Source: Loripinus fragilis (Eukaryota > Mollusca > Bivalvia > Lucinida > Lucinidae). From it: DNA of 64,000 bases. A program made the translations under genes and the position numbers. Below the pieces are notes generated by a model. The model saw only the letters and a program-made list of their open reading frames with translations. It searched no databases and had not been told where the DNA came from. The DNA lies in NCBI GenBank assembly GCA_964019695.1, contig OZ026518.1, positions 86,113,950 through 86,177,949 of the forward strand, given 5' to 3'. Positions 7,601-54,655 of the stretch are shown here, in pieces; the stretch's first letter is position 1; each line of letters starts with the position of its first letter.

Positions 7601-10600
7601 TACCTATGTGAATTAATTATTACAAATTCTAACACACCTCTCCTGTAGAGCCAATGCTAAAAAAACGTGATATATCAAACAATAATTCTCAGTTTTGAAA
7701 GATCGAGGAAAACACACACTAGCTGACGTCATTTGTTACTGCAAATTGCGTCAGTCATAGTGCTAGACGTTGTAACATCGTTTTTACGCTGGAAAGACGT
7801 TACAAATACATGTAAACGTATGCGACACAGTCCAACTATTGGCGGGATTATCTCAGTGCAATGGCAGTGGCAGCAAGTTGGAAGAAGCTGAAGACTTCAA
7901 ATGTATTTTCATCGTTTATTGTGTGTTAGAATCAAAATAGATCAGCTGCTCTATTGCGTGAATTGTTGAGTAATAATTCACTGTTTGTTGGTCAGTTGTA
8001 CAAGGATAAATCACTCACGCTACATGTTCGTGATTTGATCTTCTTCACAACTGACCTGCAAACAGTGAATTATTACTCAACAATTCACTGCTAGAGCTGA
8101 TCTATTTCTTATAATGAGAAATAAATGTAAAACAACAATTTCAAATTTGTTCAAATAAACATGAAACACCTCTTCTTTTACAAAACAGTGAAGAAGAAAC
8201 TCTTAATTATAAGTTGCAAAAAACAAATATGACCAGGAAATGTCACAATCACAGACCACAGACCAACCCACAGAATTGGGAGGAAGAGACACAGAACACA
8301 GACAGCCACACACTTAGTTTTGCTTTCAAGTTCAAGAAGAAAATTGATTCACTGGCAATGATCTAAAACTTAAATAAAATATTCACTCAGGGTTCTGCAC
8401 CCCTTGAAAGAATATTGTATATATATCTTAATGATGACATTTTCTATGTATAATTCTAACACACCCTGCCTATATAGCCAATGGTAAAGTCTATGATATA
8501 TTGAGTGACAAATCACTTGGCGGACTAGCATGACATTATTTAGCCCCATTTGGCTGTTATTTTTGATTTTTATGACTTCAACTATCCCATAAAATCTTGT
8601 TTTATTAACATTAAGTTTATGGGGTTATGTCACTTTTAGAACTAATGAATGCACAAAACATACGTCAAATTATGCTTTACTCTCCAAACAAGATTTACGT
8701 AAATTTCCAACACTCTGTTCAAGAAGGCATAATCTGAAGGAATTGTTCATATTTTCAATCTTTTTGTGTGTTAGAATCAAAATATATTTGTGCTGGCAGT
8801 GATTTGTTGCTTAATATATCACTGTCTGTTGGTCACCATCTGTTGGTCAGTTGTAAGTCACACTGGTAAATGTATACATCGATTTGCTGGTATTTATGTG
8901 TATTGCCGGTACTTCATAGACCGGAAGTGGTAGATATTGGTGTTGATACTATATAGAAAAACATGCCATATGCCTAAAGGACTATAGAATTAGATCATTT
9001 TTAAGTATTCAGTATATGCTAGCGATTTATGTAAGCATCCAGATTGGTACTCGAATCTATTCCTAAATGCTTACATAAATCGCCATATGCATGCCTAATA
9101 CTTAAAAATGGTCTAATGCTATAGTCCTTTAGGCATATGGCATGTTTTTCTATATATGATTTAACACCAATATCTACCACTTCCGGTCTATGAAGTACCG
9201 GCAATACGCTTAAATACCAGCAAATCGACATATACATTTACCAGTGTGTAAGTGGATAAATCACTTGCAATTTATGCTCGTGATTTATCCACTTTTAAAG
9301 ACTGACTTTCAGCCAGTGTTACATTAGAGCAACAAAATACTTCGAGTGCAAATGCTATTTCTTAAATTTATATGTACCATATATTACTTAATTTTTGTCA
9401 TTTATGCTAGTATGCATATACCTGCCTTTGCAGCTTGTATACCTTCTTGGTATTATCTATCTATCCACCTGTCCCCTTTTGAGCTCAAACTTTTTGTCTT
9501 GTGTGCAATGTTTTACCAATATCAGACCTGTCAGTCTGTGTACCTTATCTCACTCCGACCAAACATGCTGTGTTTCTTATCCCAACTATCCCTGCTGTGT
9601 TGCTTACCCATTAACCCTTAAGGCGCCAATCACGACTGCAGCAGACGACAAATTTTGCGACATTTTTCCCAATTTTCGACAAAAATAAGGTATGATATTA
9701 CATAAGAATCGTGATTCTCATGAAATATCATGCCTTATCTGTTATTCTTGAAAAAGCCGCAAAATTTGAAACTGTCGTCTGCTGCAAATTATAGGTGGCA
9801 CTTAATGGGTTAAACCACACTCTGGCTGTATTGTGTGCAATGCCTTATATCAATCAGTCCTGCAGTGTGCCATATATCACCCCAAACTGTGAGCCATGTC
9901 ATTTCTTAACCCAACCATACTTGCTGTGTTGTCAACAAGACCTAACCTCAATGTATGTATTCACTATATAGCTAAAGAATTCCACCAATCAAGCCATGTT
10001 TGGCCTAGTCATGTCCTAACTAATCAGCCTTCTTGTGTGCCTTTTCCGACCCTGCCAAGGCTGTTTGTGTGCTATGTCTTACTCCAAATAGTCCTGAAGT
10101 ATACAATATCCTACCAAACGAGCCGTGCTGTTTACCATGTCCTACCCAACCAGCTTGCTGTATGTTTTGTCTGACCCTGCAGATGCTTGCTGTATACCAT
10201 GTTTACCGTACCCAGTCTATTTTGTGCCATATCCTATTTGCTAGCCATGTTGTGTGCCTTGTCTCACTCTGCACAGGCTGGCCTTACTTAATTAGCCCTG
10301 CTGTGTATCCTGCTTAACCCAACCAGCCCTGTTGTGTACCATGTCCAACCCAACCAGCCCTGCTGGCTACTATGTCTAACCCAACCAGCCCTGCTGGCTA
10401 CCATATCTAACCCAACCAGCCCTGCTATGTACATGTCTAACCCAACCAGCCCTGATGTGTACCATGTCTAACCCTACCAGCCCTAATGTGTACCATGTCC
10501 TACCCAACCAGCCCTAATGTGTACCATGTCTCACCCAACCAGCCCTGATGTGTACCATGTCTCACCCTACCAGCCCTAATGTGTACCATGTCTCACCCAA

Positions 10601-19600: not shown

Positions 19601-22600
19601 GATTTTAAAAAGTTCAGGATTTTGGAAATTTTGAATTTTTACCCATGTGTTAGTCCTTTGAGTGACACCAATGACAATTTTCAAAATATTGTTGCAACCT
19701 TAATAAACCAAATAATAATTGATATTTTGTATGAGTCATCTGCCTTATTTTCCACAAAAAGTGAAGTAAGAAATCATAAAATTTGAAATCGGCCGCAGTC
19801 ACGACTGGTGTTTTAGCGATTTTTCTTGGTTTTATGTTGTCTAGGTCCCTTTGTTCAGTTGTTTCTAAGTGGACTTACACAAAGGTGGAAGGTGGCAATG
19901 GTGGTTTCAGTGAGGACTTTTACACAAAGATAGGACTTGCAGACCTTTGCGAGAAAAATTATCAAAAGATAGGTAATTGCAGGTTTTTTAATCTATCCAT
20001 GTGGCAGTGGTTGCATTAGCGAGGCCTTTTACCCAATGTAGTTAGCATAGGTGAAAGTTTTCAGGATTAACCCTGAATTCAGGATTTTGAGGCTGACTTT
20101 CCATAGAAAGTCAGCCTCAAAATGCTGAATCAGGGAGGTTACAATAGCTTCTTTGATCAGTTTTCAGATTATCTAAACACAATTAATCATTTAAACATGA
20201 AATTATTTATTTTTTGTAGGCATCCTGCAAGTTCAAAAATGTTGAATTTCTAAAGTTCAGGATTTTAGAATTTGTGAACTTTCGCCCATGTGATAGGACT
20301 GGCATATCTTTATGAGTTATTGAGAAGAAATTTAAAAAAGATAGGTACATGTACTCAGACAGTATAACATTAATGATTAATTGGTTCTTAACCCTTAAAG
20401 CACCAAACATATCTATCTGCTATCTTGAAGACTATTTGATGCATGAAAATGACAGTTTGGGATAAGACATTGGCGTAGCTGCCATTATGTACACTACGCA
20501 CGCGCATTATGAGAAAATGTACACATTCAAGAGAGATCACCGAATGTGGAGATATTGTTTTCCCATAATATTAGGAACTTCTCTTAAAGGAAAGAATTTG
20601 CTCCCTCTGGGAGCAAATTCTTTCCTTTAAGTGAAGTCATCATTATGGATATGGATGCAATTGAAGAAATCTGCTCATTTCAGTTGTCTCCCTTTGATGT
20701 GCATAAATAGTTTAGCATTCTGGCTACGCTCTTGTAAGAGATCAGTACTTAAAATCGACAGTAGATCATTGTTACATATGATTAGCAGTTCATGATCTTG
20801 GCTTTCATCTTAACGATCATTTGAAAATGAACATAACATTTTGTGATAACCTTTCATTGTGACAGGGTTTTTGGCCTCAAAATAAAAGAAGCTAGGCCAC
20901 TGTGACTTAAACATCACTGTTCGATGACTTTGACTTGCTTATATCTGATATTTGATAAATCAATATTACTTTTACATTATGCATTAGTTTGACCATAATT
21001 TTGACCTCAAAATGAAAGTAGGTCATTGTGACCTGTATTTCTTGGTTCATCTGTTATAAGTATCTGCCAGTCTTTGCTTTTAAAAAAATAAGATTAACTT
21101 TAAGTTCTCAGTTAACTTATTATGCTGAATGGAGTGACATAATTATAAGTTATATATTTTGCATACAGTAAAACCTGTGTAAAACCGCCACTCTCAAAAA
21201 GACCAAAAATTGTTTTTCAAGACTAACTATTGCTTAATGCAGGTCAAAAGTATTGCAGAATGCTCCAAGGGGAGCATTCTGCAATACTTTTGATCTTCAT
21301 TAAGCTACCATTTGTCATTAAGTCTAAGATCTTTGTCTTGTCTATTTTTGAGTGATCTTTTTACACAGGTTTTACATAATGTGATTAAATTTTGATCATT
21401 CTCTTGATATCTTTTAATTTCTAGGTAATGACATTCATCCTCAGGGTAGGCCCTGTGACAATGGGCTTTCTTCCTCTGCTGCATGTGACCTTGACCTCAG
21501 ACCAGGAATGGCAGTTGGAGTGGGCATGATAGATGCACATTGTGGAGCAATAGGTAAGGGGAACAGGTAGAGGTGGTGTGTAGAACTTTTGAATTTGTAA
21601 TAATCAGAAAAAAAATCTATTAGTTGAGAATTATATCCCCCAACCTTGTCCTCAATAACCTTGACCTCAGACCAGGAAGAGGTGGTGTGTACAACTTTTG
21701 AATTAGTAATAATCAGAAAAAATCTATAAGTTGAGAATTGTATCCCCCAACCTTGACCTCAGTGACCTTGACCTCAGACCAGGAATGGCAGTTGGAGTGG
21801 GAATGTTAGATGCACATTGTGGAGCAATAGGTAATGAGAACAGGTTGAGTTGGTGTGTAGCCTGTAGAACTTATCGGAAATAATCCATTAGTGAATTATG
21901 TCTCCAACTGTTTTTATATCACCCGCAAAATGAAATTTTTGTGGGGTATACTGCTTTCAGCCTGTCCATCTTTCCGTCATTCCGTGAACATTTCGAGGTT
22001 TTTGTTGAATAACTTATGTAGCTTTTGTCACATTTGGATCAAATTTGCACAACATTTGCGTATTGTTGTTTTGCATATTCATTTTGGTGCTGATCCCTTC
22101 AGTGTCAGTGTAGCTTCTGAAGCATAGGGCCAGTTAAGCAAAAATAATTTGCGTAAAATTGCAATTATTTTCTTATCCATCAGTTTAAACCTGTGTTTTG
22201 GGTACTCAAAAGAACCGTCTCATCGACGGTTCTTTTGAGTACCCACAACATATGTTTTGGTTGAGAAATAAGAAAAATAATTTTCAGTTACACACTCTTA
22301 TCTTGGGGCCAGTGAAGGGATTGATGAATTTTGACAAACATTGCATGTATACATCCTTATGTAGGGTAAAAGAACAGATTAGATTTTGGTGACCTCGGTC
22401 CTGTTTCAAGGTCACTAAAGGTCACGGAAGATTGAAAAATTTTTGTCTGCAGGTCACAGAAGATTAAAAAATTCATTGTCTGCACTATATCGCCTGAATG
22501 GATTTAAGCAAAAACTTGCAAATTTGTATCACTTTGAGATGACAAAGAACCAATTAAATTTTTTTGACATAGATTTTATTTTCAAGGTTACAGAAGGTCA

Positions 22601-37600: not shown

Positions 37601-40600
37601 ACAGGTTAGTGGGTATCACAATACTGATGTCACAGGTCAGTGTGTATTAAAATACGGGTATAGATCCTAGGTTAGTGTTGGCAAAACTGATGTCAAAGAT
37701 CAATGTGTTTTAAAAATGCTGGTATCACAGGGCAATGTTGCAGTGTTCATGTTGTAGTTATATACTGGTGTCACAAAATAGTGTTGTAGTGAAAATGTTG
37801 TTACTTCATGCAGTAAAATGTTGATATCACATGTCAGTGTTGTAGTAAAAGAAATGTCACAGGCAGTAAGATATACTCCTCGCCACAAATTTAGCATAAT
37901 GCGAAAACAGATTCAAAGAATTTATTCAAATTAATGCTATTTAATTATGAACATTTTTCAGCAGAAAATATCATTGCATTCTGATGCATCAATGTATATG
38001 GGAAGTCCGTGCAACAATGGTAGGGTAAGAACGCATGTGTTATGTCACCCAAAACTACAAATTTTGAAAGCAAAAACAAGTTTGTGTTTGAACTGATAGA
38101 ACTTTACGTTTTTGTTTAGAAAACACATTGTAATCAGGAAAAATATTTCAGATGATGTCTTTGATAGATTACTCACTAATAGCCAGTGTCATCAGGCTCA
38201 GCGTCTTTTCAGAAACCGAGGTCAATAACGGATGTATCCTCCTCTACGCTGGTGTAACTCTCGTACTCACAGTGGCATACATTGCACTAGTTTTCTGAGA
38301 AACCCGGGCTCCAAATTGTTCCAATTGACAACAAGTGCACATACAAGGTCATCAAGCATATCTCAGACACACATTTTTCTTATTTTCGCAAATTCCCGAA
38401 GTATGCTAAATTTTTGTTTAGGAGTATATTTATGGCAGTAACAAAAATATTAGTGCCCCATGTCAATGATGTAAAATGCTTAATGTCAAAGGTCAGAGTA
38501 AAATACCAAAGTAACGGGTCAGTACTGCAGTAAAATGTAAATGCCATATGTCAGTGTTATGGGCTATTATCAGCTGCTTCTCGGGCTAAATTGGTTTTGG
38601 TCCCTAAGTTTAATGAGCTGCTCAGAAACTAACTTGGTGACATTAAGGCAACATGCAGATTCAGATGTGCTAAAGTCAATCTGATTTGATAGCCAAGATG
38701 GCAGAATGTAACATATGATCAGTCTCATCCAGGTGAGCAATTTCTGTACTATTGAGGCATATAGTTCAAAATTTATAATTTACAAGTAGCACAGGTCCCT
38801 AAATTTCTGACAATATATTCAAATATTTGTCTTTTATTTAAATAAATTAGCCCTATGCTCAACTTTATCATAAATGATAATGGTTGCTATATGTGACTCA
38901 AGTACCATATTTATCCTAATTAGCAAACATGCTCTTATAAGCCCACACTGAGCTCTTTTGAGTTGTGAATTGATTTTCAGCCAATCTGGTGGTCAAAGTT
39001 CATCAATAATATGATTATACCCCCGGTACAAAGTATATAAGGGGTATATAGTTTTTGCCTTTTCTGTAATTATGTTTGTTTGTTTGTTTGTCTGTTTGTT
39101 TGTTTGTCTGTAAACTTTTTTTTTTCGTCAAAGATTTCTCAGCAACTACTTGGGTTAGGATTCTGAAATTTGGTACAAGGCTTGATAGTGATGAGTTGTA
39201 TTGTGTAACAAAAGAACAGCCACATATTGCTTATCAGTCCCTTTATTTGTTCATTTTTCTTTCTCTCCAATGGAAAAAATTTTCGTCAAAGATTTCTCAG
39301 CAACTACTTGGGTTAGGATTCTGAAATTTGGTACAAAGCTTGATAGTGATGAGTTGTATTGTGTAACAAAAGAACAGCCACATATTGCTTATCAGTCCCT
39401 TTATTTGTTCATTTTTCTTTCTCTCCAATGGAAATTTCTGTCACAGATTTCTCAGCTCCTATTGGAACCAGTGTTTTCAAATTTTGTTTACATCTTCAGG
39501 ATGGCAAAGTGTACTGTGTAAAAGGAAATTAAGATGCTAATCCTCATTTTGCCTTCTTTTTTCAAATTTTCATTTTTTCCTTCTTTCTCTCTTATATAAT
39601 ACATATAGACATTTTTTCTGTCAAAGATTTCTCAGCAACTACTTGAGTTAGGATTCTGAAATTTGATACAAAGCTTGATAGTGATTAGTTGTATTGTGTA
39701 ACAAAAGAACAGCCACATATTGCTTATCAGTCCTTTTATTTATTCATTTTTCCTTCTCTCCAATGAAAATTTCTGTCGCAGATCTCTCGGCTCCTATTGG
39801 AGCCAGTGTTTTCAAATTTAGCGTACACCTTCAAGTAGGCTAAGTGTATTGTGTAAATGAAAATAAAGATGCTAAAGCTCATTTTGGTTTCTTTTTCAAT
39901 TTTTCCTTCTGTCACTCCTATATAACACATATGGACGTTTTTTGTCAGAGTTTTCTCAGCAACTACTTGATTTAGGATTATGAAATTATTTGTGTACGTT
40001 CAGGTAGGAGAAATGTATTGTATAAATGAAAACTAAGGTGCTAATCCTCATTTTTGCCTTCTTTTTTCAAATTTCCAATTTTTCCTTCTGTCACTCTTAT
40101 ATAACACATATGGACATTTTTCATCAAAGTTTTCTCAGAAACTACTTGATTTAGGATTATGAAATCTTTGACAATTTTGTCTTTTCTCTGAAAGTGTTAC
40201 AACCTCTGATGGCTACCACCGGGGGTATGTGAGCTTCGCTCACTTCTTGCTATATTTTTATGGAGTGAATGAAAAAGTGTGGATCAGGATCAGCTGGCTT
40301 CTGACGCCATCTATTCTGGATTTACACTGTTTTCAAAAGAGGGTATAGACTTTGGACCAGTTATATGTACAGTTTCACTATGCCAAATAGGGTATATGTT
40401 AAGTGGCATATTTGCTGGTGATAATAAACCAATTTAATACAGGGGAGATTATCATGTCAAGTTTACTGTACCATGTGTTTGACATTTTAGGTCTTCCAGT
40501 TATTGTTCCTGATGAAGCTGAGTCTGTGTTACTAGGAGGAGGCATACTTGCTGCAACAGCTGCTGGTATTTATCCTACACTGCAGGTAAGGTTATTGTGT

Positions 40601-43600
40601 GGGAGGTGTGCATTTGGGGAAACAGCTGCTGGGTTTTATTTAGGGAAACAGCTGCTGGGTTTTATTTAGGGAAACAGCTGCTGGGTTTTATTTAGGGAAA
40701 CAGCTGCTGGGTTTTATTTAGGAAAACAGCTGCTGGGTTTTATTTAGGGAAACAGCTGCTGGGTTTTATTTAGGGAAACAGCTGCTGAGTTTTATTTAGG
40801 GAAACAGCTGCTGGGTTTTATTTGAGGAAACAGCTGCTGGGTTTTATTTAGGGAACAGCTGCTGGGTTTTATTTAGGGAAACAGCTGCTGGGTTTTATTT
40901 GAGGAAACAGCTGTTGGGTTTTATTTAGGGAAACAGCTGCTGGGTTTTATTTGAGAAAACAGCTGCTGGGTTTTATTTAGGGGAACAGCTGCTGGGTTTT
41001 ATTTAGGGAAACAGCTGCTGGGTTTTACTTAGGGAAACAGCTGCTGGGTTTTATTTAGGGAAACAGCTGCTGGGTTTTATTTAGGGAAACAGCTGCTGGG
41101 TTTTATTTAGGGAAACAGCTGCTGGGTTTTATTTGAGAAAACAGCTGCTGGGTTTTATTTAGGGAAACAGCTGCTGTTTTTTTTTTTAGAAAACAGCTTC
41201 TGGGTTTTATTTAGGGAAACAGCTGCTTGGTTTTATTTAGGAAAACAGCTGCTGGGTTTTACTTAGGGAAACAGCTGCTGGGTTTTATTTAGGGAAACAG
41301 CTGCTGGGTTTTATCTGAGAAAACAGCTGCTGGTTTTTATTTAGGGAAACAGCTGCTTGGTTTTATTTAAGGGAAACAGCTGCCGGGTTTTATTTAGGGA
41401 AACAGCTGCTGGGTTTTATTTAGGGAAACAGCTGCTGGGTTTTATTTGGGGAAACAGCTGCTGGGTTTTAGTTGGGGAAACAGCCGCTGGGATTGTCTGG
41501 AAACAAGAAAGTTCACTGATAATTTTTTAACACAAAATAGAAGTGTATCCACTGTTTAGTACTGGTGTAACCCAGGAATACCCATCCAGATATGACTGAA
41601 AAATTGTTGCTTGGGACATACAGATTCAAAACAAACAAAAAATGATAGAAGTTAAGATAGTTTACAAGTAGAATTGAATTCAAATACAGGTCTTTTACCA
41701 TAATAATATATACAAATTGTTACAACAGTAACTTGATTTGGTGGACTGTTTCCAGTATATGAGCTCAAGAAAACCTGTCTTCGGAGGTTTGTGAACAAGG
41801 AAGGGGCAGACCAGTCTGCACATCCGCGCAGTCTGATCAGCGCCTTTGTTTTTCGCTTTTTGGAAAGTATCATATCCAAACTTGCTACAAGCGAAATTAT
41901 TACTTTCTAACTAGGCTCTGTGGCTGAGCAGGCTAGTTTGAATCTCACCTTGTCGGAAACTCCGAAGACAGGTTTTCTCGTGACGAGGCCCATATGAACT
42001 CATTAGTGGCAGAGTGTGAAGTATAAACCCATCATCCATGAGATGTGATACAAACTTTTGTAATAATTTTTTATTATATATTTTTCTCACCTGATTTTGA
42101 TGAATATTGTATAAAATGCAGAATACACCCGAAATATAAACCTTGCATTTCCGATTCTGAGGTAGTAAGTTTTTACCGTCATAAGTCTGGTTCCATTTAA
42201 CCATATGATATTTACCTCCTAGTGTTGTCTGCTGATAACCTTTGCAAACAGATTGGACCAAGATCAGGCCAGACAAAATGTCTGGCCTGATCTGGATCCA
42301 ATCTGTTTGATACCCAGATGGAATTCCTGAAGCAATTTTTTTCAAAAAAGTTGAATTTGAAAAAAATCAGCTGACAACAAAAAAAATGAAAAATTTCCCA
42401 GGTGGCAAAAAGTTAATAATGCTGCTGAGTCAGCAGAAAATCAATGGGAATATGGATATCTGATCAATTTAAACAAGAAGTGAAAAGCAACATTGATGAA
42501 TCAGAAAAATGTTTAAATTATAGATTATATAAAAAAGAATTTTGCTTTGAAAACTTTTTTAACATTTTGCCATTGCCTCTATCCAAATATATATGTAAAT
42601 TTAGATGTCTCAGTCATAAATTACCAATTGAAAAGGATGCTTTTTAATCATTGAGAGAAATGAACGCATTTGCCTATTGTGTAATAAAAATGAGTTAGGA
42701 GATGAGTTTCACTAGCTGTTTAACTGTGAATTCTTTCATAGAAGCAGAATCAAATTTCTTCCCCTTTGGAGCTTCAGATCACCTAACAGTCTAAAGTTTG
42801 AGAAATTAATGAACTCAGATGATAGAGCAGTCTTGCCTAAATTAGCACTTTTTATAAAGATAATATTCACTAAATTCAAATAATACAGAAACTACCATCT
42901 TCCTCTTGAAATACGTATAACATGCAGTTTTCTTTTTTCTTTTCTAAATTTTAATCTTTTCCATACAGCAATTGCACTTAGTGTTTGGATTGATAGGTCT
43001 GGAGGCTGTGTAGACCTGGACAGGACTGTTTCTGTGAGAGTAGGCCTGTCGGGTCAGCACTGTACCAGACCTCTGGATCAGTGTGCGCTGATCTGTGTGA
43101 TATTTAAAACCTGAGTGCATAAATATGTTCTTCACATGCCATTTTGATGTTTGTAAATATGTTGTTTCATGTTCCATTTTAGCTCTTATGCCCGCAATGG
43201 GCCTGGAGTAAATAAAAACTTGTTGTAAAACTTGTTGTTTAATCCGGGAACAAGGCAGTTCACCGACAAGACAATTCACCGACAAGGTTTTTGAAGACAG
43301 TTCACAGACACTTTTGAAGACAGTTCACCCACACTTTTGAAGATACATATGTTTTATGCAAAAATGACATATGGTTGAAAATATATCTGTCAATTATGAA
43401 GAATAATGGACCAATTATGATTTAAAGTAAAAAGTAGATATATAAATTGGTAGAGAATAATGGCGAATGCTGCCAGTATAGAAGATAGTTAGGATATTTC
43501 TTCCCGCTTATGAGAGAGTACATTTATTTGATTGTTGTACCGCATCAGTTGGATCATGGACTTTGAATTATTGTTGGTTAATAAGGCGAAGGAAATTCAC

Positions 43601-45473
43601 AAACAATACAAAGTATTCTGCTTAATATTTTTAAAAATAGATAGGCTGTGTGTCTATTTTTGTTTATTTTTACGTTTATTTTTTCTTCCCCAGTTTATGT
43701 TTTCTTTCTGTGTTTTCATACAGGCAATGTTATGATCGCCATATATGCATTAGGCATGTGCGTGTCAAGCGACGTATATTAGGTCAATCACTGGTGTGAC
43801 TAATAAAAAAAACGAAGTGCAATAGCAATCATACAACTTCATAAGCTCTATATTAGTCATTCGTTTAATTGTATCTCAATTAATAGTATAAATTGTGACA
43901 TTCATTATAGATACAGTATAAAATTTGTAGATGAACTGTCTTTAATTCTGTCGGTGAACTGTCTTCAATTCTGTCGTGAACTGTCTTCAAAATGCGTGTT
44001 GGTGAACTGTCTTGTCGGTGAACTGTCTCGATTCCGTTTAATCCTAGGATGGGCCTCGTTTTAGAATCTATCCATAATAGTCACATGTTTGATATGAAAT
44101 CCTGTATTTGGGTTTGTCCTATTCAGAGTGTGCTTTCTGACTTTAAGAGATGTTCCATACACATTATCATTATAGTAACTTGATCTGGCTACAGTATCCC
44201 GTCAAGTGGATGAGGCCATACCATCGGATCACCACAGACATGTAGCGTCAAGGGTGATCCAATGGTATAGCCTCATACAGGAGATGTGATACTGGACGTC
44301 AGATCAAGTCACTATTGTGATAATATGTTTTTTATATGCCTTTTTCTGACATTATTCTGATTTTATTACCTGTTTAGGTATTTAATCAAAAAAATTGCAG
44401 GAACATTTGTCATAATGTTTCGTTTCTTTACGTCACTTCATCATGTTTTCTGTCTCTGGTTCCATGCTTGAAATTTACTTTACCTAATGTCGCCACAAAA
44501 ACAGGTAACCGATGTTAGCTACATTTTAAAGGATGGTAATACGGAATCAGAAAACCTCATTTCGTTGATCCGGCTTTCTGTATCATATGGCCAGAAAACA
44601 GACAGTTAAAACCTTGTATCATTTATAGGTATATAATAAATGTCAACGCTGGTTTTGTGCTTTGCTTTCAGGAAAGCATGAAGGAAATGTGTGGTAAAGG
44701 GAAGGCAACTCTTCCAAGGAAAGCTGAACAGAGGTAGGTGACTCCTAGTCCTCATAGGGTAACAGAATCGTGAGAGATCATTATACAAAAAAAAAATTTA
44801 TAGTCTTGGTTCAGAATTTTCTAATCTGAATCTCAAATAAAGTCCATGGAATTTTAGAAAATGCATAAAATTAATTAATGTTGAATTTCCCAAATTACCC
44901 TGGTGTGTTATTTAATATCCCTGGTGTAGCCATGAGATATTGAACTTTCCAGAGCTGTTCATAAGATATTGAATTTACCAGGTGTGCTCATGATTTATTG
45001 TTTTTCAAGATATAATTGCCAGATACTGAATTTTGTAGGTGTGCTAATGATACTTTGAATTTGCCAGGAGTGCTTCCAAGATAAAAAATTTCTAGGTGTG
45101 CTCATTAAATATTGAGTTTTCCATATTTAGAAATGAGATACTGAATTTCTGTGGTGTGATCATGAGATATTGAATTTCCCAGGTGTGCTAAAAATGTATC
45201 GATTGATTATATCGTGTAGTATTATGAAATATTCAATTCCTGGGTGTGCTCATGAAATACTGAATTTTAAAGGCATCCTCATGATGTTTATGTAGTATGC
45301 TCATAAGATATTGAATTTCCTAGATGTGCTGAGCGGCTCATAAGTTATTATTTCCTCTTTCCTGAGCATGCAATCATTTTTAATTTTGTTTCAGCTACCA
45401 TGAGAAAAAGTTTCAAGTTTTCCTAAAGATGTATCAACATCAGAGAGAATACAAGAAGATTATGACCAACTAG
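2456..45473 (+). CDS. FGGY: FGGY carbohydrate kinase domain-containing protein, 15 coding exons
   Basis: The gene encodes a cytosolic ATP-dependent sugar kinase of the FGGY family; the vertebrate orthologue is described as a D-ribulokinase. Joining 15 GT-AG exons gives a continuous 549-residue frame that aligns end to end with vertebrate FGGY (about 550 residues). Visible motifs are the N-terminal phosphate-binding DVGT (residues 8-11), DATCSLVV in exon 2, MWMDHRA (107-113), PKLLWLKK at the end of exon 3, MIDAH (256-260; D258 is the predicted catalytic base by analogy with glycerol and ribulose kinases), GTSTCH (290-295), VPGVWGP (305-311), [10 protein letters not shown] in exon 10 and the C-terminal nucleotide-binding [11 protein letters not shown] (453-463). 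The ATG at 2456 is the only one in frame just before DVGT and gives [11 protein letters not shown]. Intron phases are 0,1,0,2,1,1,0,0,2,0,0,1,0,2. No exon is broken, so the gene looks functional. Family assignment is near certain; substrate is inferred from orthology. Confidence 0.97.
2668..2855 (-). mobile_element. tRNA-derived SINE copy
   Basis: On the minus strand the copy has the tRNA-like B-box GGTTCGAGCC-type segment, CTCAGTGGTAGAGTGCTTGA near the 5' end and the tail block ending near GATTCTTTACGTCCC. It lacks the first bases of the full head, lies 35 nt after exon 1 and abuts a foldback repeat. Confidence 0.75.
2853..3022 (-). repeat. Foldback repeat (GACGGTTCTTTTGAG family)
   Basis: A central inverted repeat of AAGAACCG...CGGTTCTT with flanking CCAAAACATATGTT and AACACATGTTTAAAC blocks, ending in GGCCCTAT. 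At least ten copies occur in the window in both orientations. Confidence 0.75.
3034..3262. mobile_element. MITE flanked by TTAA
   Basis: Terminal repeats TTAACTCTGTGTCTGCTAGC and, inverted, GCTAGCAAGGAAAGAGTTAA. The inner hairpin is built on GATCAGG...CCTGATC. TTAA at both ends would suit a piggyBac-type target; no transposase is present. Confidence 0.7.
3757..3870 (+). repeat. Foldback repeat, partial
   Basis: Carries the ATATGTTTTGGGT and GAGGCAGTTCTTTTGA blocks of the foldback family with a damaged core. Confidence 0.6.
3981..4152. mobile_element. TA-type MITE (CAGTAAAACCTGT ends)
   Basis: Ends are CAGTAAAACCTGTCTTAAGC and an inverted GTTTTACTG. The body is an inverted repeat around TGCAGAATGCTCC. 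It is a shortened copy of the best-represented MITE in the window. Confidence 0.75.
4290..4440 (+). repeat. Foldback repeat, partial
   Basis: Contains the AACAATCTGATCGAG core remnant followed by CACATCATATGTTTTGGTTT, typical of the right half of the foldback family. Confidence 0.6.
4603..4634 (+). repeat. Poly-C tract (32 C)
   Basis: An uninterrupted run of 32 C in intron 1. The length is likely to vary between individuals and may be affected by sequencing error. Confidence 0.9.
5311..5428 (+). CDS. FGGY: FGGY coding exon 2 (residues 60-99)
   Basis: Acceptor TTTTGAAG|ACTGTG. The exon encodes [40 protein letters not shown], which matches the [12 protein letters not shown] block of the family. 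Donor ACTG|GTGAGT, phase 1. The open frame upstream of 5311 (from 5227) is intronic and does not align with the family. Confidence 0.95.
5881..5957. repeat. Perfect hairpin in intron 2
   Basis: Arms of roughly 30 nt around ATGGAGCATTTGCTCA and its complement, with a very short loop. It is probably the core of a small MITE. Confidence 0.7.
6419..6570 (+). CDS. FGGY: FGGY coding exon 3 (residues 99-149)
   Basis: Acceptor CTCTGGCAG|GTAATT. The exon encodes [20 protein letters not shown] through [10 protein letters not shown]. The MWMDHRA block belongs to the sugar-binding N-terminal FGGY domain. Donor AAAAAG|GTATGA, phase 0. Confidence 0.95.
6742..6885. mobile_element. Small MITE with long inverted ends
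   Basis: GAGTGTGTGGGTAGGATAG at the left and its inverted counterpart ATCCTACCCTCACACGA at the right, with GACGGATTTTT inner arms. No coding content. Confidence 0.6.
7160..7400. repeat. Degenerate tandem repeat, CTTGAAAAGTACTTGAAAA
   Basis: Seven or so copies of a roughly 30-nt unit built on TGTCTTGAAAAGTACTTGAA. The same unit occurs inside the hAT-like element at 26425-26824, so this stretch may be a relic of that family. Confidence 0.65.
7625..8112. mobile_element. Foldback element carrying CRE octamers
   Basis: Begins near TTCTAACACACCTC, carries TGACGTCA at 7724-7731, then TGTGTTAGAATC, and closes with an inverted repeat around GTGAATTGTTGAGTAATAAT. Other copies are at 28480-28715 and, inverted, 55985-56405. 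Confidence 0.7.
8450..9330. mobile_element. Diverged copy of the CRE-bearing element, split by a nested insertion
   Basis: Starts with TTCTAACACACCCTGCC and includes GTGTTAGAATCAAAATA near 8767. It is interrupted at 8859 by another element and resumes after 9253 with GGATAAATCACTT. Confidence 0.6.
8859..9248. mobile_element. 390-bp inverted-repeat element, 5-bp TSD
   Basis: Terminal inverted repeats are CACACTGGTAAATGTATA. The target duplication TAAGT is seen at 8854-8858 and 9249-9253. Almost the whole element is one long palindrome. A second copy is at 35443-35769. CAC-initial ends with a 5-bp TSD recall Transib, but no transposase is present. Confidence 0.8.
9480..10315 (+). repeat. Decayed edge of the 31-bp minisatellite
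   Basis: CCCTGCTGTGT, TACCATGTCC and CCAACCAG motifs recur at irregular spacing, indicating older diverged units. A palindromic element with TTAACCCTTAAGGCGCC ends splits it at about 9610-9811. Confidence 0.65.
9608..9812. mobile_element. Small MITE inserted in the minisatellite edge
   Basis: Left end TTAACCCTTAAGGCGCCA and right end CACTTAATGGGTTAA are roughly inverted. The inner arms contain GCAGCAGACGACA and TGTCGTCTGCTGC. Confidence 0.6.
10316..13835 (+). repeat. 31-bp minisatellite in intron 3, about 110 copies
   Basis: The unit reads CCAACCAGCCCTGCTGTGTA then CCATGTCTAAC. Local homogenisation is evident: a block at about 10500-10830 uses CTAATGTGTACCATGTCTCA, and a block at about 13480-13815 uses CCCCACCAGC and often alternates TACC and TGCC, giving a 62-bp higher-order period. 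Open frames in the array are repeat artefacts. Confidence 0.95.
14038..14126 (+). CDS. FGGY: FGGY coding exon 4 (residues 150-179)
   Basis: Acceptor CTGCCTCCAG|AATCTG, immediately after the decayed edge of the 31-bp minisatellite. The exon encodes [20 protein letters not shown] then [10 protein letters not shown], matching the family's GHFFDLPDFLSWKATG block. Donor CACCAG|GTGAGA, phase 2. A MITE begins 18 nt downstream of the exon. Confidence 0.95.
14145..14338. mobile_element. TA-type MITE, 18 nt after exon 4
   Basis: CAGTAAAACCTGTCTTAAGC at the left, inverted repeat around GCAGAATGCTCC, degenerate right end AACTG, with TA on both sides. Confidence 0.8.
14466..14662. mobile_element. TA-type MITE
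   Basis: Ends CAGTAAAACCTGTGTAAAAT and ACACAGGTTTTACTG, TA on both sides, with the same palindromic body as its neighbours. Confidence 0.85.
14671..14812. mobile_element. TA-type MITE, left end missing
   Basis: Resumes 9 nt after the previous MITE at GACAAATGATAGCTTAATG and runs to GGTTTTACTGTA. It lacks the first 50 nt or so, and may reflect a tandem or recombined pair. Confidence 0.75.
14922..14948 (+). mobile_element. SINE head fragment
   Basis: GGGAGCGCAGTGGCTCAGTG followed by GTAGC matches the 5' end of the SINE family, then the similarity stops. Confidence 0.5.
16059..16245 (+). mobile_element. tRNA-derived SINE copy
   Basis: Runs from GGTAGAGTGCTTGACTCGAG through TTCGAGCCTCACC (B-box region) to GTTGATGGGACATAAAGAAT. 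The A-box end is truncated. Confidence 0.75.
17000..18880. other. Intron 4 stretch without recognised gene
   Basis: AT-rich sequence. 18060-18660 holds faint repeats of a block containing AAACTTTAAAATCTCCTTTT with gaps, suggesting an old tandem-core repeat. No exon-like conserved block was found. Confidence 0.5.
18900..19230. mobile_element. Foldback element (TTATTGAATTTATTAAA family)
   Basis: Inner arms TGTATTATTGAATTTATTAA and its complement flank a loop rich in TTTATCTC. Related copies lie at about 23530-23860 and 59870-60340. Confidence 0.6.
19397..19648 (+). repeat. Repeat copy A flanking exon 5
   Basis: Starts CATGGGTGAAAGTTTTCAGG and ends GAATTTTTACCCATG, so the ends are roughly inverted. 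It shares its whole length with 20039-20294 in the same orientation. Confidence 0.75.
19845..19972 (+). CDS. FGGY: FGGY coding exon 5 (residues 179-222)
   Basis: Acceptor TTGTCTAG|GTCCCT. The exon encodes [20 protein letters not shown] then [23 protein letters not shown], matching the CSLVCKWTY block and the following DNYSKIG region. Donor AGATAG|GTAATT, phase 1. Two copies of one repeat flank it in direct orientation. Confidence 0.95.
20039..20294 (+). repeat. Repeat copy B flanking exon 5
   Basis: Direct-orientation copy of 19397-19648, including GAGGCTGACTTTCCATAGAA, the TTTGTAGGCAT block and a CCCATGTG end. It begins 66 nt after exon 5. Confidence 0.75.
20575..20640. repeat. Hairpin in intron 5
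   Basis: Arms CTTAAAGGAAAGAATTTGCT and the complementary AGCAAATTCTTTCCTTTAAG with a short loop. Confidence 0.65.
21166..21376. mobile_element. TA-type MITE just upstream of exon 6
   Basis: CAGTAAAACCTGTGTAAAAC at the left and ACACAGGTTTTAC at the right, with a palindromic body. It ends about 48 nt before exon 6. Confidence 0.8.
21425..21553 (+). CDS. FGGY: FGGY coding exon 6 (residues 222-265), catalytic Asp
   Basis: Acceptor TTTCTAG|GTAATG. The exon encodes [20 protein letters not shown] then [20 protein letters not shown] and GAIG. MIDAH contains the predicted catalytic base D258. The exon is symmetrical (129 nt, phase 1-1). Donor CAATAG|GTAAGG. Its 3' half is duplicated in the next intron. 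Confidence 0.95.
21491..21905 (+). repeat. Tandem duplication of the exon 6 3' half and donor
   Basis: Three copies begin with TTGACCTCAGACCAGGAA at 21491 (in exon 6), 21661 and 21769. The third retains the exon end up to 21830 and a GTAATG donor. Over the last 67 exon bases it differs from exon 6 at two positions, one silent and one Ile to Leu. The middle copy has lost the exon core. Both cryptic acceptors near the third copy give the wrong frame. Confidence 0.85.
22126..22320 (+). repeat. Foldback repeat, near-complete
   Basis: Runs from GGGCCAGTTAAGCAAAAATA through AAGAACCGTCTCATCGACGG to ACACTCTTATCTTGGGGCC. It is the clearest view of the family's two ends. Confidence 0.75.
22965..23490 (+). 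repeat. Tandem-core repeat with CCTTGACCT units
   Basis: Begins with a GTCTGTCCGTCCGTCTG simple stretch, followed by about three roughly 130-nt units containing GGTGTGTGGATGCATCTTGG and CACTGTGACCTTGACCTC. It is the same family as 53047-54655. Confidence 0.75.
23884..24120. mobile_element. 237-bp MITE abutting the exon 7 acceptor
   Basis: Ends GAGCCGTGACATGTGATTTC and AAATCACATGTCGCGGCTC are inverted. ATTT lies on both sides. A second copy of the same length is at 52408-52644. Only 15 nt separate it from exon 7. Confidence 0.8.
24136..24233 (+). CDS. FGGY: FGGY coding exon 7 (residues 265-297)
   Basis: Acceptor TTTTCTCTGTAG|GTTGTC. The exon encodes [20 protein letters not shown] then [19 protein letters not shown] is the second phosphate-binding motif. 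Donor ATGGCA|GTAAGT, phase 0. A 237-bp MITE ends 15 nt before the exon and a SINE begins about 30 nt after it. Confidence 0.95.
24264..24465 (+). mobile_element. tRNA-derived SINE, most complete copy
   Basis: Starts GGGAGGGCAGTGGCTCAGTG (A-box TGGCTCAGTGG), has a degenerate B-box region, then CATTTTGTCCTTGAACAAG and the tail ending GATGGGATGTATAGAATTA. It is a pol III-type retroposon with no tRNA function expected. Confidence 0.8.
24560..26345 (+). repeat. Tandem-core repeat in intron 7
   Basis: Units of roughly 130 nt contain CATTCAGATCCCCACCCCTA, ACCATATATAATG and ACCAGGATGTCC. The array is split by the hAT-like element at 25333-25869 and resumes with CTTCATAAAAGGCTT. No ORF of note. Confidence 0.75.
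25333..25869. mobile_element. hAT-like nonautonomous element, 8-bp TSD
   Basis: Ends TAGAGCTGTAACGATA and, inverted, TATTGTTACAGCTCTA. An exact 8-bp duplication CTCTTCAC is at 25325-25332 and 25870-25877. TAGAG-type ends plus an 8-bp TSD are hAT hallmarks. Subterminal arms repeat GCAATATATTG. No transposase. Confidence 0.88.
26425..26824. mobile_element. hAT-like element with CAGGGTTCG end
   Basis: Left end CAGGGTTCGCACAGACTTGA and right end CTGTATGAACCCTG are inverted. Both arms repeat CTTGAAAAGTCCTTGAA. The centre (26588-26672) is a hairpin around GGTGCAGCATTTGCTGCACC. No clear TSD. It ends 65 nt before exon 8. Confidence 0.7.
26890..26997 (+). CDS. FGGY: FGGY coding exon 8 (residues 298-333)
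   Basis: Acceptor ACTCTGTAG|GTCAGT. The exon encodes [20 protein letters not shown] then [16 protein letters not shown], nearly identical in pattern to the family's FVPGVWGP and EGGQS blocks. Donor AAGCTA|GTGAGT, phase 0. A hAT-like element ends 65 nt upstream. Confidence 0.96.
27050..27387. other. Intron 8 stretch, nothing recognised
   Basis: AT-rich with an A-run, a GGTGGGTGGGTAGGTAGG stretch and a short C-run. No repeat family or coding block was identified. Confidence 0.5.
27388..27541 (+). mobile_element. Diverged tRNA-derived SINE copy
   Basis: CACAGTGGCTCAGTGGTATC, then GGTTTGAGCCTTACC, TTGTGTCCTTGAGCAAGACA and a tail ending GTAAAGAATCAAA. It is clearly older than the other copies. 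Confidence 0.7.
28015..28076 (+). CDS. FGGY: FGGY coding exon 9 (residues 334-354)
   Basis: Acceptor TTTATTTCCAG|ATTGAT. A short exon encoding [20 protein letters not shown] plus two bases. It corresponds to the variable helical linker after GKLIDH in vertebrate FGGY. Donor AAAGA|GTAAGT, phase 2. Confidence 0.93.
28148..28285. mobile_element. Long near-perfect palindrome
   Basis: Arms of about 65 nt start TTGACTAATGAGGCATTGGA and meet at GAGGCGAAGCCGAG. It is a foldback MITE about 70 nt after exon 9. Confidence 0.8.
28480..28715 (+). mobile_element. CRE-bearing element, 5' part
   Basis: TTCTAACACGACTCGCCTGT at the left, TGACGTCA at 28577-28584 and 28600-28607, then GTAAACGTATGCGATG. It lacks the hairpin end seen at 7922-8112. 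Confidence 0.7.
29006..29694. mobile_element. 689-bp element, CAGGGGTGTAAAATT ends
   Basis: Perfect 15-nt terminal inverted repeats, with GGGCGAGTG subterminal motifs repeated at both ends. CAGGGG-type ends suggest hAT, but the flanks show no clean 8-bp duplication. No coding frame. Confidence 0.75.
29957..30030. repeat. Hairpin core of the TTAA-flanked family
   Basis: GTGTGAACCCAGATCAGACT and its inverted counterpart close to each other; outer parts are eroded. Confidence 0.6.
30040..31460. other. Intron 9 stretch without recognised gene
   Basis: No conserved coding block. A short open frame at 30271-30465 and one on the minus strand at 30700-30921 lack recognisable domains. Confidence 0.5.
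31468..32768. mobile_element. 1.3-kb element with CAGTGATTTTTTTTAC ends
   Basis: Left end CAGTGATTTTTTTTACAAAT and right end GTAAAAAAAATCACTG are inverted. CCGGGACTC-like and GAGACCCAGGA motifs lie just inside. No transposase and no clear TSD. Confidence 0.6.
33302..34179. mobile_element. 878-bp TA-flanked element
   Basis: Left end CACTAAAGGACTTTAAAAAC and right end GTTTTTAAAGTCCTTCAGTG (inverted, one mismatch) with TA at both sides. Consistent with a Tc1/mariner-type derivative. No coding content. Confidence 0.8.
34182..35191. mobile_element. 1010-bp TA-flanked element carrying X-box-like motifs
   Basis: Left end CACTTATGTGCCAAATTAAA and, inverted, right end TTTAATTTGGCACATGACTG, with TA on both sides; it shares the left TA with the preceding element. 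It contains GTTGCTAAGCAACC (34370), GTTGCCATGGTTAC (34426), GTTGTCATAGAAAC (34742) and GTTGCTAGGCAACC (34991). It ends 43 nt before exon 10. Confidence 0.8.
35235..35391 (+). CDS. FGGY: FGGY coding exon 10 (residues 354-406)
   Basis: Acceptor TTGCTTCCAG|ACACAA. The exon encodes the variable [20 protein letters not shown] segment and then the strongly conserved [20 protein letters not shown] block. Donor GCATG|GTAAGT, phase 0. Terminal-inverted-repeat elements lie 43 nt upstream and 51 nt downstream. Confidence 0.96.
35443..35769. mobile_element. Second copy of the 5-bp-TSD palindromic element
   Basis: CACACTGGTAAATGTATA ends and an ATTTT duplication at 35438-35442 and 35770-35774. The left arm has an internal tandem duplication of the CGATTTATGTAAGCATTTAG-like segment. 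It starts 51 nt after exon 10. Confidence 0.85.
35830..35935 (+). repeat. Foldback repeat, partial
   Basis: GAAATAGAGTATCCACAACA followed by TATGCTATGGTTGAGAAATA, the right half of the foldback family. Confidence 0.55.
36545..36725 (+). repeat. Foldback repeat
   Basis: From TTTTTGAGCTTAAAATTATA through AAGAACCATCTAATTGCGAC to ATATGTTTTGGTTGAGAAAT; the core pairing is partly lost. Confidence 0.65.
37044..37118 (+). CDS. FGGY: FGGY coding exon 11 (residues 407-431)
   Basis: Acceptor TATCATTTCAG|GTTAGT. The exon encodes [20 protein letters not shown] then VQALA, matching the DDLAILYLATVQAIA block. Donor CTAGCT|GTAAGT, phase 0. Confidence 0.95.
37217..37452. mobile_element. TTAA-family MITE filling much of intron 11
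   Basis: Left TTAACTCTTTCATCCCATG, hairpin core at 37335-37410 around GATCAGGCCTGACA, right CTAGCAGGTAAAGAATGG. It takes up about 65% of the 365-nt intron and ends about 31 nt before exon 12. Confidence 0.7.
37484..37604 (+). CDS. FGGY: FGGY coding exon 12 (residues 432-472), nucleotide-binding motif
   Basis: Acceptor CTATTTTCAG|TATGGC. The exon encodes [20 protein letters not shown] then [31 protein letters not shown] is the C-terminal adenosine-binding motif; R458 replaces the Ser of human FGGY. Donor TCACAG|GTTAGT, phase 1. Sequence around this donor is repeated in the intron. Confidence 0.96.
37594..38565 (+). repeat. Degenerate tandem array seeded at the exon 12 donor
   Basis: The junction sequence ATGTCACAGGTTAGTG (exon 12 end plus donor) recurs as ATGTCACAGGTCAGTG at 37627 and in about eight decayed units of 30-50 nt. 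The array is split by an insertion at 37874-38426 and resumes with CCCATGTCAATGATGTAAAA. Confidence 0.7.
37874..38426. mobile_element. 553-bp TA-flanked element
   Basis: Left end TACTCCTCGCCACAAATTTA and, inverted, right end TTTTTGTTTAGGAGTA, with inner AGCATA / TATGCT pairing and TA on both sides. The short open frame within has no recognisable domain. Confidence 0.7.
39010..40255 (+). repeat. Tandem-core repeat in intron 12
   Basis: Bounded by ACCCCCGGTACAAAGTATAT and ACCACCGGGGGTATGTGAGC. It has a TTTG/TCTG simple stretch at 39073-39110, then about seven units of roughly 160 nt starting GTCAAAGATTTCTCAGCAAC. Open frames up to 106 codons are products of the repeat. Confidence 0.8.
40491..40585 (+). 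CDS. FGGY: FGGY coding exon 13 (residues 472-503)
   Basis: Acceptor GACATTTTAG|GTCTTC. The exon encodes [20 protein letters not shown] then [12 protein letters not shown], matching the MPVVLSQEVESVLVGAAVLG block of the family. Donor CTGCAG|GTAAGG, phase 0. Bases 40553-40573 closely match the unit of the adjacent 26-bp minisatellite. Confidence 0.96.
40606..41490 (+). repeat. 26-bp minisatellite seeded from exon 13
   Basis: About 33 copies of GGGAAACAGCTGCTGGGTTT then TATTTA, starting 20 nt after the exon 13 donor. Each unit has a CAGCTG E-box core. The first units are in the same reading frame as the exon (TAAGFY versus exonic TAAGIY). Confidence 0.95.
41545..41643 (+). mobile_element. SINE 3' part
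   Basis: TTAGTACTGGTGTAACCCAG through TTGTTGCTTGGGACATACAG to a short A-rich tail. The tRNA-like head is missing. Confidence 0.65.
41754..41992. mobile_element. MITE with AGAAAACCTGTCTT arms
   Basis: Left CAAGAAAACCTGTCTTCGGA and inverted right GAAGACAGGTTTTCTCGTG, with GCGCAGTCTGATCAGCGCCT inside. Copies are at 50152-50388 and, interrupted, 57205-57700. Confidence 0.75.
42225..42416. mobile_element. TTAA-family MITE
   Basis: Core hairpin ATTGGACCAAGATCAGGCCA and its inverted copy, outer GTCTGCTGATAACC arms, and a right end reaching AAAAGTTAA. Confidence 0.65.
42420..43237 (+). pseudogene. Decayed LINE: reverse-transcriptase C-terminus and 3' UTR
   Basis: From 42444 the frame reads [20 protein letters not shown] onward with [20 protein letters not shown] and [13 protein letters not shown]. 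After a frameshift near 42640 it continues [20 protein letters not shown], an in-frame [19 protein letters not shown], and [20 protein letters not shown] to a stop at 42881-42883. The CxxC-x8-H-x4-C knuckle and surrounding words are typical of the C-terminal end of animal non-LTR reverse transcriptases. The tail GGGCCTGGAGTAAATAAAAA at about 43200-43219 looks like a LINE 3' end with poly(A) signal. It is 5'-truncated and dead. Confidence 0.8.
43246..44036. mobile_element. 791-bp element, 8-bp TSD, subterminal repeats
   Basis: The target duplication TTTAATCC is at 43238-43245 and 44037-44044. Ends are loosely inverted (GGGAACAAGGCAGTTCACCG against CGGAATCGAGACAGTTCACC when read inward). GACAGTTCACCGACA-type motifs repeat three to five times at each end. 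This fits a hAT-like nonautonomous element; the class is inferred. Confidence 0.82.
44165..44325. mobile_element. Palindromic MITE in intron 13
   Basis: Outer arms CTTGATCTG and CAGATCAAG with inner TGAGGCCATACCAT against ATGGTATAGCCTCA. No coding content. Confidence 0.65.
44672..44733 (+). CDS. FGGY: FGGY coding exon 14 (residues 504-524)
   Basis: Acceptor TGCTTTCAG|GAAAGC. The exon encodes [20 protein letters not shown] plus two bases, matching the QEAMAKMSKVGKVVFP region of vertebrate FGGY. Donor CAGAG|GTAGGT, phase 2. Confidence 0.93.
44895..45340 (+). repeat. Degenerate minisatellite in intron 14
   Basis: About a dozen decayed units of 30-40 nt built on CATGAGATATTGAATTTCCC and AGGTGTGCT. 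It ends about 55 nt before exon 15. Confidence 0.75.
45395..45473 (+). CDS. FGGY: FGGY coding exon 15 (residues 524-549 and stop)
   Basis: Acceptor TTTTGTTTCAG|CTACCA. The exon encodes [20 protein letters not shown] then KKIMTN and a TAG stop, matching the KKYQVFLKLVEHQKEY C-terminus of the family. The 3' UTR runs into a foldback repeat about 20 nt after the stop. Confidence 0.96.
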
Positions 45474-45493
45474 ATCAAGCCTCCAGATAAATT

Positions 45494-45650
45494 GGATAAG
45501 AGTGTATAATTAAAAGTTATTTTTCAACCAAAACATATGTTGTGGGTAGTCAAAAAAAAACGTCTCAATGAGATGGTTCTTTTGAGCCCCCAAAATATAT
45601 GTTTAAACTGATAGATTAAGAAATAGTCACAATTTTGTGCTCAGTATATT
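45494..45650 (-). repeat. Foldback repeat in the FGGY 3' UTR
   Basis: GGATAAGAGTGTATAATTAA, AACCAAAACATATGTTGTGG and GAGATGGTTCTTTTGAGC blocks in reverse orientation relative to 22126-22320. It starts about 20 nt after the stop codon. Confidence 0.75.
45509..45514 (+). promoter_or_regulatory. FGGY: Candidate poly(A) signal ATTAAA
   Basis: This is the first poly(A)-signal variant seen after the stop codon. It lies inside the left end of the repeat at 45494-45650. No canonical AATAAA was noticed close by, so the true 3' end is uncertain. Confidence 0.3.
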
Positions 45651-53046: not shown

Positions 53047-54655
53047 GCTTTTTATGCCCCCAAGGAACTTTGGGAGGCATATAGTAATCGCACTGTCCCT
53101 CGGTCTGTCAGTCCGTCCGTGTGTCTGTCCGTCCCGCTTTCGTGTCCGGTCCATATCTCCTATATTCTTTGAGGTAGGAATTTCAAATTAGGTGTGTGGA
53201 TGCATCTTGGGATGGCTGAGTGTCGCATACCATTTTCGGGTCACTGTGACCTTGACCTCTGACCTAGTCTTTAGAATAATCGTGTCTGGAGCATATCTCT
53301 TAAATTACTTGAGGTAGGAATCTCAAATTTGGTGTGTGGATGCATCTTGGGATGACGAAGTGTCGCATACGATAATTGGGTCACTGTGATCTTGAACTTG
53401 ACCTCTGACCTAGTTTCTAGAAACTGCATTGAGTCTGGCGCATATCTCCTATATTCTTTGAGGTAGGAATTCCAAATTTGGTGTGTGGATACATCTTTGG
53501 ATGGCGGAGTGTCGCCTTCCATTTCGGGTCACCTTGACCTTGACCTCTGACCTAGTTTTTAGAATAATCGTATCCGGAGCATATCTCTTATATTATTTGA
53601 GGTAGGAATTTAAAATTTGGTGTGTGGATGCATCTTGGGATGGCGGAGTGTCGTGTACCATAATTGGGTCACTGTGACCTTGAACTTGACCTCTGACCTA
53701 GTTTTTAGAATAATCGTGTCCATAGCATATCTCTTATATTATTTGAGGTAGGAATCTCAAATTTGGTGTGTGGATGCATCTTGGACTGACAAAGTGTCGC
53801 ATACCATAATTGGGTCACAGTGATCTTGAACTTGACCTCTGACCTAGTTTCTAGAAACTGCATTGAGTCTGGTGCATATCCTATATTCTTTGAGATAGGA
53901 ATTCCAACTTTGGTGTGTAAATACATCTTGGGATGACGGGGTGTCACATACCATTTTAGGTCACTGTGACCTTGACCTCTGACCTAGTTTTAAGAATTAT
54001 TGTGTCCGGAGCATATCTCTTGTATTCTTTGAGTGAGGAATTCCAAATTTGGTGTGTGGATACATCTTGGGATAGCGGAGTGTCATGTACCATTTTTGGG
54101 TCACTGTGACCTTTACCTCTGACCTAATTTTAGAATAATCATGTCCAGAGCATATCTCTTGTATTATTTGAGGTAGGAATCTCAAATTTGGTGTGTGGAT
54201 GCATCTTGGGATGACGAAGTGTCGTTTACCATAATTAAGTCACTTTGACCTTGAACTTGACCTCTGACCTAGTTTCTAGAAACTGGTGCATATCCTATAT
54301 TCTTTGAAATAGGAATTCCAAATTTGGTATGTAAATGCATCTTGGGATGCCTGAGTGTCACAAACCATTTTTGGGTCACTGTGACCTTGACCTCTGACCT
54401 AGTTTTCAAGAATTATTGTGTCCAGAGCATATCTTCTATATTATTTGATGTAGGAATCCCAATTTTGGGGTGGTGATTCCTCGTGGGATGGCGGAGTGGT
54501 GCATACCATTTTGAGTCACTTTGACCTTGACTTTGACTTCTGGCCTCATTTCTAGGTTTTTGGTGCTATATTACAGCTATCTTTCCTCAAATGTGTCTTA
54601 TGCTAGACCAATTCCTTTGGGGGCATTTGTCACGTGTTTGTGACATTTCTTGTTT
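53047..54655 (+). repeat. Tandem-core repeat with DR1 and ERR-like sites
   Basis: Bounded by ATGCCCCCAAGGAACTTTGG and TTTGGGGGCATTTGTCACG. It has a GTCCGTCC simple stretch at 53113-53135, then about ten units of roughly 140 nt containing GGTGTGTGGATGCATCTTGG and GTGACCTTGACCTCTGACCT. Eight exact TGACCTCTGACCT sites are present. Confidence 0.85.

What the first reader, a model, noticed from the sequence alone, without database searches (positions are those of the whole stretch)
40553..41490. A 26-bp intronic minisatellite that appears to derive from the end of exon 13
The exon bases 40553-40573 (GCAACAGCTGCTGGTATTTA and one more T) match the repeat unit (GAAACAGCTGCTGGGTTTTA...) at 18 of 21 positions. 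The array of about 33 copies starts 20 nt after the donor. The first unit sits 66 nt downstream of the exon copy, in the same reading frame, so TAAGIY in the protein and TAAGFY in the array correspond. It looks as though a coding fragment was duplicated into the intron and then amplified. Each unit also carries a CAGCTG E-box core.
Basis: partly seen in the sequence, partly recalled or inferred. Interest (0 to 1): 0.75.

Follow-up and report, generated by a model that had tools for sequence, protein, structure and literature searches.

The report
Intron repeat grown from exon fragment
In the sugar-kinase gene of a probable bivalve, a repeat array inside an intron most likely grew from a copied scrap of the neighbouring exon, and three other exon ends of the same gene also seem to have left copies in their introns; this looks like harmless genome drift rather than a working element.

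Summary
Exon 13 of an FGGY carbohydrate-kinase gene (probably a bivalve) ends at 40585; a 26-bp array (40612-41491, 33.8 copies) starts 26 nt into the intron. Exon bases 40553-40573 match the unit at 18 of 21 positions; no other place outside the array comes within 6 mismatches on either strand. The unit is private to the locus: of 38 genome matches with at most 2 mismatches, 32 lie in the array and 6 are scattered. Relatives carry the exon's peptide or a near form, so exon-to-intron is the likelier direction.

It is not alone. Comparing each exon's last 60 nt plus 10 intron nt with up to 590 nt of its own intron, 4 of 14 exons (5, 6, 12, 13) have a same-strand copy scoring 28 or more, against 0 of 14 reverse-complement and 0 of 182 swapped-intron controls. 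Three copies keep a GT donor. MIB1, nearby, gave 0 of 8. This resembles amphioxus "mirages" (tandem duplications of exon-intron boundaries); the exon-13 unit lacks the boundary, so it is mirage-like only. No function is shown; neutral duplication followed by amplification is the best reading. The frame and E-box arguments carry little weight.

The parts
40491..40585 (+). FGGY exon 13 (13th of 15 coding exons in this model), peptide [31 protein letters not shown]
   Evidence: tblastn with relatives, splice sites, weak sub-threshold FGGY_C match alone, E 0.094, alignment of relatives
40553..40573 (+). exon stretch matching the array unit at 18 of 21 positions, presumed source
40586..40611 (+). 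donor gtaagg and pre-array intron; part of a possible longer copy (40602 on)
   Evidence: alignment; flank tests marginal
40612..41491 (+). 26-bp minisatellite, 33.8 copies
21485..21557 (+). end of exon 6 with its donor, source of an intronic copy
   Evidence: blastn 97.3% over 73 nt to 21762-21834; score 120
21660..21766 (+). middle 107-bp copy of the exon 6 repeat, exon part missing
21762..21834 (+). intronic copy of the end of exon 6 including GGTAA
37596..37655 (+). 31-bp tandem repeat, 1.9 copies, beginning inside exon 12 and crossing its donor (exon ends 37604); copy at 37627-37645
19929..19975 (+). end of exon 5 with donor, source of a diverged copy
20292..20347 (+). diverged intronic copy of the end of exon 5, ending GATAGGTA

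Best explanation
The array descends from exon 13. Inferred steps: (1) a short local tandem duplication, about 66 bp, copied the last part of exon 13 across the 5' splice site into intron 13; (2) selection kept the real exon while the intron copy drifted; (3) slippage or unequal exchange took hold of a 26-bp segment of that copy and amplified it to about 34 units. Shown here: the similarity, the privacy of the unit to this locus, the conserved exon peptide, and copies of three more exon 3' ends in this gene's introns. It most likely has no function: it is spliced out and tolerated because the authentic donor CAG|gtaagg is intact (inferred, no RNA data).
For: 18 of 21 match 66 nt away and nothing else within 6 mismatches in the window outside the array; 0 of 20000 shuffles, 2 of 3000 against the longer intron and 0 of 2736 window pieces, 87 of 20000 synonymous recodings. 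Unit private: 32 of 38 genome matches in the array. Of 958 array x exon x strand comparisons the two best are the two exon-array pairs that are neighbours, exon 6 (42) and exon 13 (28); next 24. 6 of 17 aligned relatives have GATAAG here and the rest near forms. 4 of 14 exon ends have own-intron copies against 0 of 182 swapped and 0 of 14 reverse-complement at score 26 or more (Fisher 1.7e-5, threshold chosen after seeing the scores).
Against: The matching core is only 12 exact bases inside 21. Given the protein, 0.4% of recodings do as well. The sequence after TTTAT in the exon is not recognisable after the array (best alignment is the unit core again). Upstream flank: local test not significant (1103 of 5000 shuffles; 2743 of 19635 window pieces). 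In the exon-start version of the test one swapped intron of 182 reached 31, so scores near 30 can occur between unrelated pieces. MIB1 gave 0 of 8. No DNA of relatives was available.
Confidence: 0.8

Rival explanations
1. Chance: an unrelated minisatellite happens to resemble the alanine-rich codons of the adjacent exon (ACA GCT GCT GG).
For: Keeping the protein and redrawing codons gives an equal score in 87 of 20000; the finding was picked post hoc; upstream flank only marginal.
Against: 2.1e-8 per position by composition, 0 of 20000 shuffles, adjacency, same strand, and three more exon-end copies in the gene.
Confidence: 0.15
2. The array is a splicing or transcription element: exon-like repeats beside the donor (G triplets, CAGCTG, acceptor-like TTTTATTTAG) act as enhancers or decoys, and the exon likeness is kept for that reason.
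For: Position 26 nt from the donor; intronic minisatellites have been linked to alternative splicing in C. elegans (PMC4039745, passages). The motif reading is recalled, not from a call.
Against: No match in Rfam for 40000-45600; folding only mildly better than shuffles (z -1.95, 10 of 200); no RNA data.
Confidence: 0.04
3. Reverse direction: the array, or gene conversion from it, shaped the exon bases.
For: Exon and array are adjacent and share sequence.
Against: Relatives share the exon peptide here (6 of 17 GATAAG, rest near forms), so the exon state is older than a locus-private array.
Confidence: 0.01

Closest known systems
'Mirages' of amphioxus: minisatellite-like tandem duplications of exon-intron boundaries in Adh3, globin, troponin C and PGBD5 genes (PMC3087553, PMC3902484; passages read; the original Adh paper is not held)
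   Same: Tandem copies of exon ends in the neighbouring intron; units of 10-160 bp are reported there; some keep splice signals. Exon 6 and exon 12 here fit directly.
   Different: Probable bivalve, not amphioxus. The exon-13 unit holds exon-like sequence only, no boundary, and has about 34 copies. Instability and normal splicing were shown there, not here.
Ordinary intronic minisatellites / VNTRs
   Same: 26-bp head-to-tail units, variant units, a degraded far edge.
   Different: The likely source of the unit can be named: the adjacent coding exon.
Tandem repeats that modify exon-intron structure in human paralogues in segmental duplications (PMC2812944, passages)
   Same: Minisatellites at exon-intron boundaries.
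   Different: There the repeats change exon or intron structure and may form introns; here no change of the transcript is known.

Membership tests
Minisatellite | Head-to-tail repeat of roughly 10-60 bp (definition recalled) | tested here: met
   26 bp x 33.8, 91% matches; 34 anchored units
Minisatellite | Length polymorphism (VNTR) | not testable with these tools
   one assembly, one array found
Mirage (amphioxus) | Repeat unit spans an exon-intron boundary: exon 13 array | tested here: not met
   the 26-bp unit has only exon-like sequence; array starts 26 nt inside the intron
Mirage (amphioxus) | Repeat unit spans an exon-intron boundary: exon 6 and exon 12 repeats | tested here: met
   exon 6; exon 12:
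Mirage (amphioxus) | Repeat unit spans an exon-intron boundary: exon 5 copy | tested here: inconclusive
   one diverged copy with donor about 370 bp downstream, gapped alignment
Mirage (amphioxus) | Normal splicing is unaffected | not testable with these tools
   no RNA data
Dispersed or transposon-borne repeat | Unit or array at other genomic places | tested here: not met
   6 scattered single matches at up to 2 mismatches against about 14 expected by composition; the tool warns that counts of repeats are lower bounds

The most novel reading that the evidence does not exclude
Exon 3' ends with their donors are a recurrent seed of intronic tandem repeats in this bivalve lineage: duplications across the 5' splice site arise again and again, are tolerated because the upstream authentic donor wins, and then decay or amplify, so that some ordinary-looking intronic minisatellites are fossils of duplicated coding sequence. 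A donor-side bias (4 of 14 ends against 0 of 14 starts; Fisher p 0.098, not significant) would follow from splicing tolerance.
Probability: 0.3. Interest if true: 0.55.

Novelty: new member of a known kind. Interest (0 to 1): 0.42.

Why it matters
Where the first unit of a minisatellite came from can seldom be traced (general knowledge). Here the likely source is a named coding exon next door, and four exon ends of one gene seem to show the same kind of event at different stages: near-intact copy (exon 6), short repeat across the donor (exon 12), diverged single copy (exon 5), full array (exon 13). That offers a way to test, across bivalve genomes, how often splice-site duplications seed repeats and whether they are tolerated on the donor side only.

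Tried and rejected
RNA structure: folding only mildly better than shuffles (10 of 200); no Rfam match at gathering score in 40000-45600. Dispersed repeat family: not supported by the genome pattern search. E-box function: not pursued, since CAGCTG is part of the exon stretch. Rest of the presumed 66-bp copy beyond the array: best local alignment was again the unit core. Longer copy upstream of the array: anchored nucleotide test 224 of 5000 shuffles and 334 of 19631 window pieces; local version not significant (1103 of 5000; 2743 of 19635). Peptide version by sum over relatives: 117 of 19630 window pieces, 350 of 10000 shuffles; by best single relative not significant (933 of 19630; 2680 of 10000, in which one of 17 rows was mis-sliced; only the sum version was redone). 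Exon starts: 0 of 14 at score 26 or more; exon 15 scored 25 (3 of 300 shuffles), left as a hint. Exon ends were placed from protein matches and splice consensus and are off by 1-2 nt for several exons. In one search, 32 of the 51 TRF rows were used; the rest (homopolymers, period 4 or 16 rows, other-period rows of the same arrays, long rows with a truncated consensus and a few others) were dropped, one long unit was used truncated as printed, and the overlapping pair exon 12 with its own repeat was left out. The translation printed at the end is in a wrong frame and is not used. FGGY paralogues and a 3-mismatch genome count could not be obtained.

Papers: PMC3087553, PMC3902484, PMC4039745 and PMC2812944 were seen as passages; all others as search listings. 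That no bivalve case is in print is not claimed; none was listed in searches of one open-licence library (best-ranked rows only).

Full report
What is there. The window lies in an animal assembly of 1.99 Gb in 685 contigs (G000:C5) and carries an FGGY carbohydrate-kinase gene on the + strand. tblastn with relatives places 15 coding exons between 2456 and 45473. Among the best-scoring relatives the named ones are mostly bivalves (Mercenaria, Ruditapes, Mactra, Potamilus, Dreissena in the first seven rows), so a bivalve is likely; the species is not identified. Exon 13 is 40491-40585 and intron 13 is 40586-44671.

The array. TRF gives 40612-41491, 26 bp, 33.8 copies. Unit by unit there are 34 anchors, 13 identical to AACAGCTGCTGGGTTTTATTTAGGGA; variants (TTTGAGGA twice, TTTGAGAA twice, TTTACTTAGGGA twice) recur at scattered units; the far edge is degraded while the first three units at the near edge are pure consensus. 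That is ordinary minisatellite behaviour. The unit was found nowhere else as an array: 38 matches at up to 2 mismatches in 20, 32 here and 6 scattered, about 14 being expected by composition.

Is the exon match real? 18 of 21 is confirmed. By composition it is rare: 2.1e-8 per position, 0 of 20000 shuffles of the intron start, 2 of 3000 against the longer intron and 0 of 2736 window pieces. The fairest null for a coding stretch keeps the protein and redraws the codons (uniform codon use); it reaches the score in 87 of 20000. Direction: 6 of 17 aligned relatives carry GATAAG here and the others near forms, so the exon is older than a locus-private array. A longer local alignment (exon 40535-40573 with intron 40602-40639) suggests that the copied piece began further upstream; its flank alone is marginal in some tests and not significant in others. 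The intron copy reads G where 14 of 17 relatives have G and the present exon has A, a hint that it keeps an older state.

The wider pattern. tblastn also hit a second copy of the end of exon 6. It is a repeat whose first copy, from 21490, is 170 bp (exon end, donor, intron start), the second 107 bp without the exon part, the third again with the exon part, 63 of 65 identical. A systematic test followed: last 60 exon nt plus 10 intron nt against up to 590 nt of the downstream intron. Exons 5, 6, 12 and 13 score 32, 120, 28 and 32; the other ten score 15-20. Swapped introns: 1 of 182 at 24 or more, 0 at 26 or more; reverse complement 0 of 14. Exon starts against upstream introns: 0 of 14 at 26 or more, while 2 of 182 swapped ones reach 26 and one reaches 31, so scores near 30 are not beyond chance in every comparison. 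Shuffles reaching the observed score: 1, 0, 4 and 2 of 3000 for exons 5, 6, 12 and 13; window pieces 0 of 2714, 2722, 2691 and 2736. Fisher for 4 of 14 against 0 of 182 is 1.7e-5, with a threshold set after seeing the scores and swaps that are not independent. The exon 12 case is a 31-bp tandem repeat beginning inside the exon and crossing its donor. Exon 6 is beyond doubt, the other three rest on statistics. In the one other gene that could be tested, eight exon ends of MIB1 about 145-162 kb beyond the window's end, none scored above 20, so generality is open.

Mechanism. Short tandem duplications crossing the 5' splice site (seen most plainly at exons 6 and 12) put exon-end copies into the intron; the intact upstream donor continues to be used (inferred); the copies drift, lose parts, or are amplified. 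The exon 13 array fits as the amplified outcome of such a copy. Shown: similarity, privacy, direction by conservation, recurrence in the gene. Inferred: the 66-bp duplication, amplification by slippage or unequal exchange, neutrality.

Comparison. The phenomenon is close to the amphioxus mirages (PMC3087553 and PMC3902484, passages): the exon 6 and exon 12 repeats meet the defining feature; the exon 13 array does not, because its unit lacks the boundary. It may be the end stage of one, but is not filed as one. No bivalve case was listed in the searches made, which cover one open-licence library only.

Verdict. A real and well-chosen observation; the origin story is probably right; the array is most likely neutral; the larger point is the recurrence at four exon ends of the same gene.

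Noticed in passing
21490-21554 vs 21767-21831; flanks 21555-21640 vs 21832-21908: The exon part of the exon 6 copy is more alike (63 of 65) than the adjoining intron part (62 matches, 12 mismatches, 15 gap columns); Fisher p 0.011, post hoc. Gene conversion from the exon, or constraint on the copy, would explain it.
   Followed up: partly
21484-21504 and 53140-54546: Exon 6 contains a stretch (around TGACCTTGACCTC) that matches units of the 139-bp array at 53140-54546 at up to 19 of 20 positions and other window places; it also sits at the borders of the exon 6 repeat, as if short homology guided the duplication.
   Followed up: no
45399-45435 vs about 45161-45200: The start of the last exon (15) has a weak copy in the intron upstream, next to a 29-bp array at 44909-45189 (score 25, 3 of 300 shuffles).
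   Followed up: no
10294-13846: A 3.5-kb intronic array of a 31-bp unit (114.5 copies, also 93-bp higher order) lies between exons 3 and 4.
   Followed up: no
L024-L026 (G000:C5, about 145-162 kb beyond the window's end): The 3' part of a MIB1 (mind-bomb) E3 ligase gene lies on the opposite strand; used as a comparison gene.
   Followed up: yes
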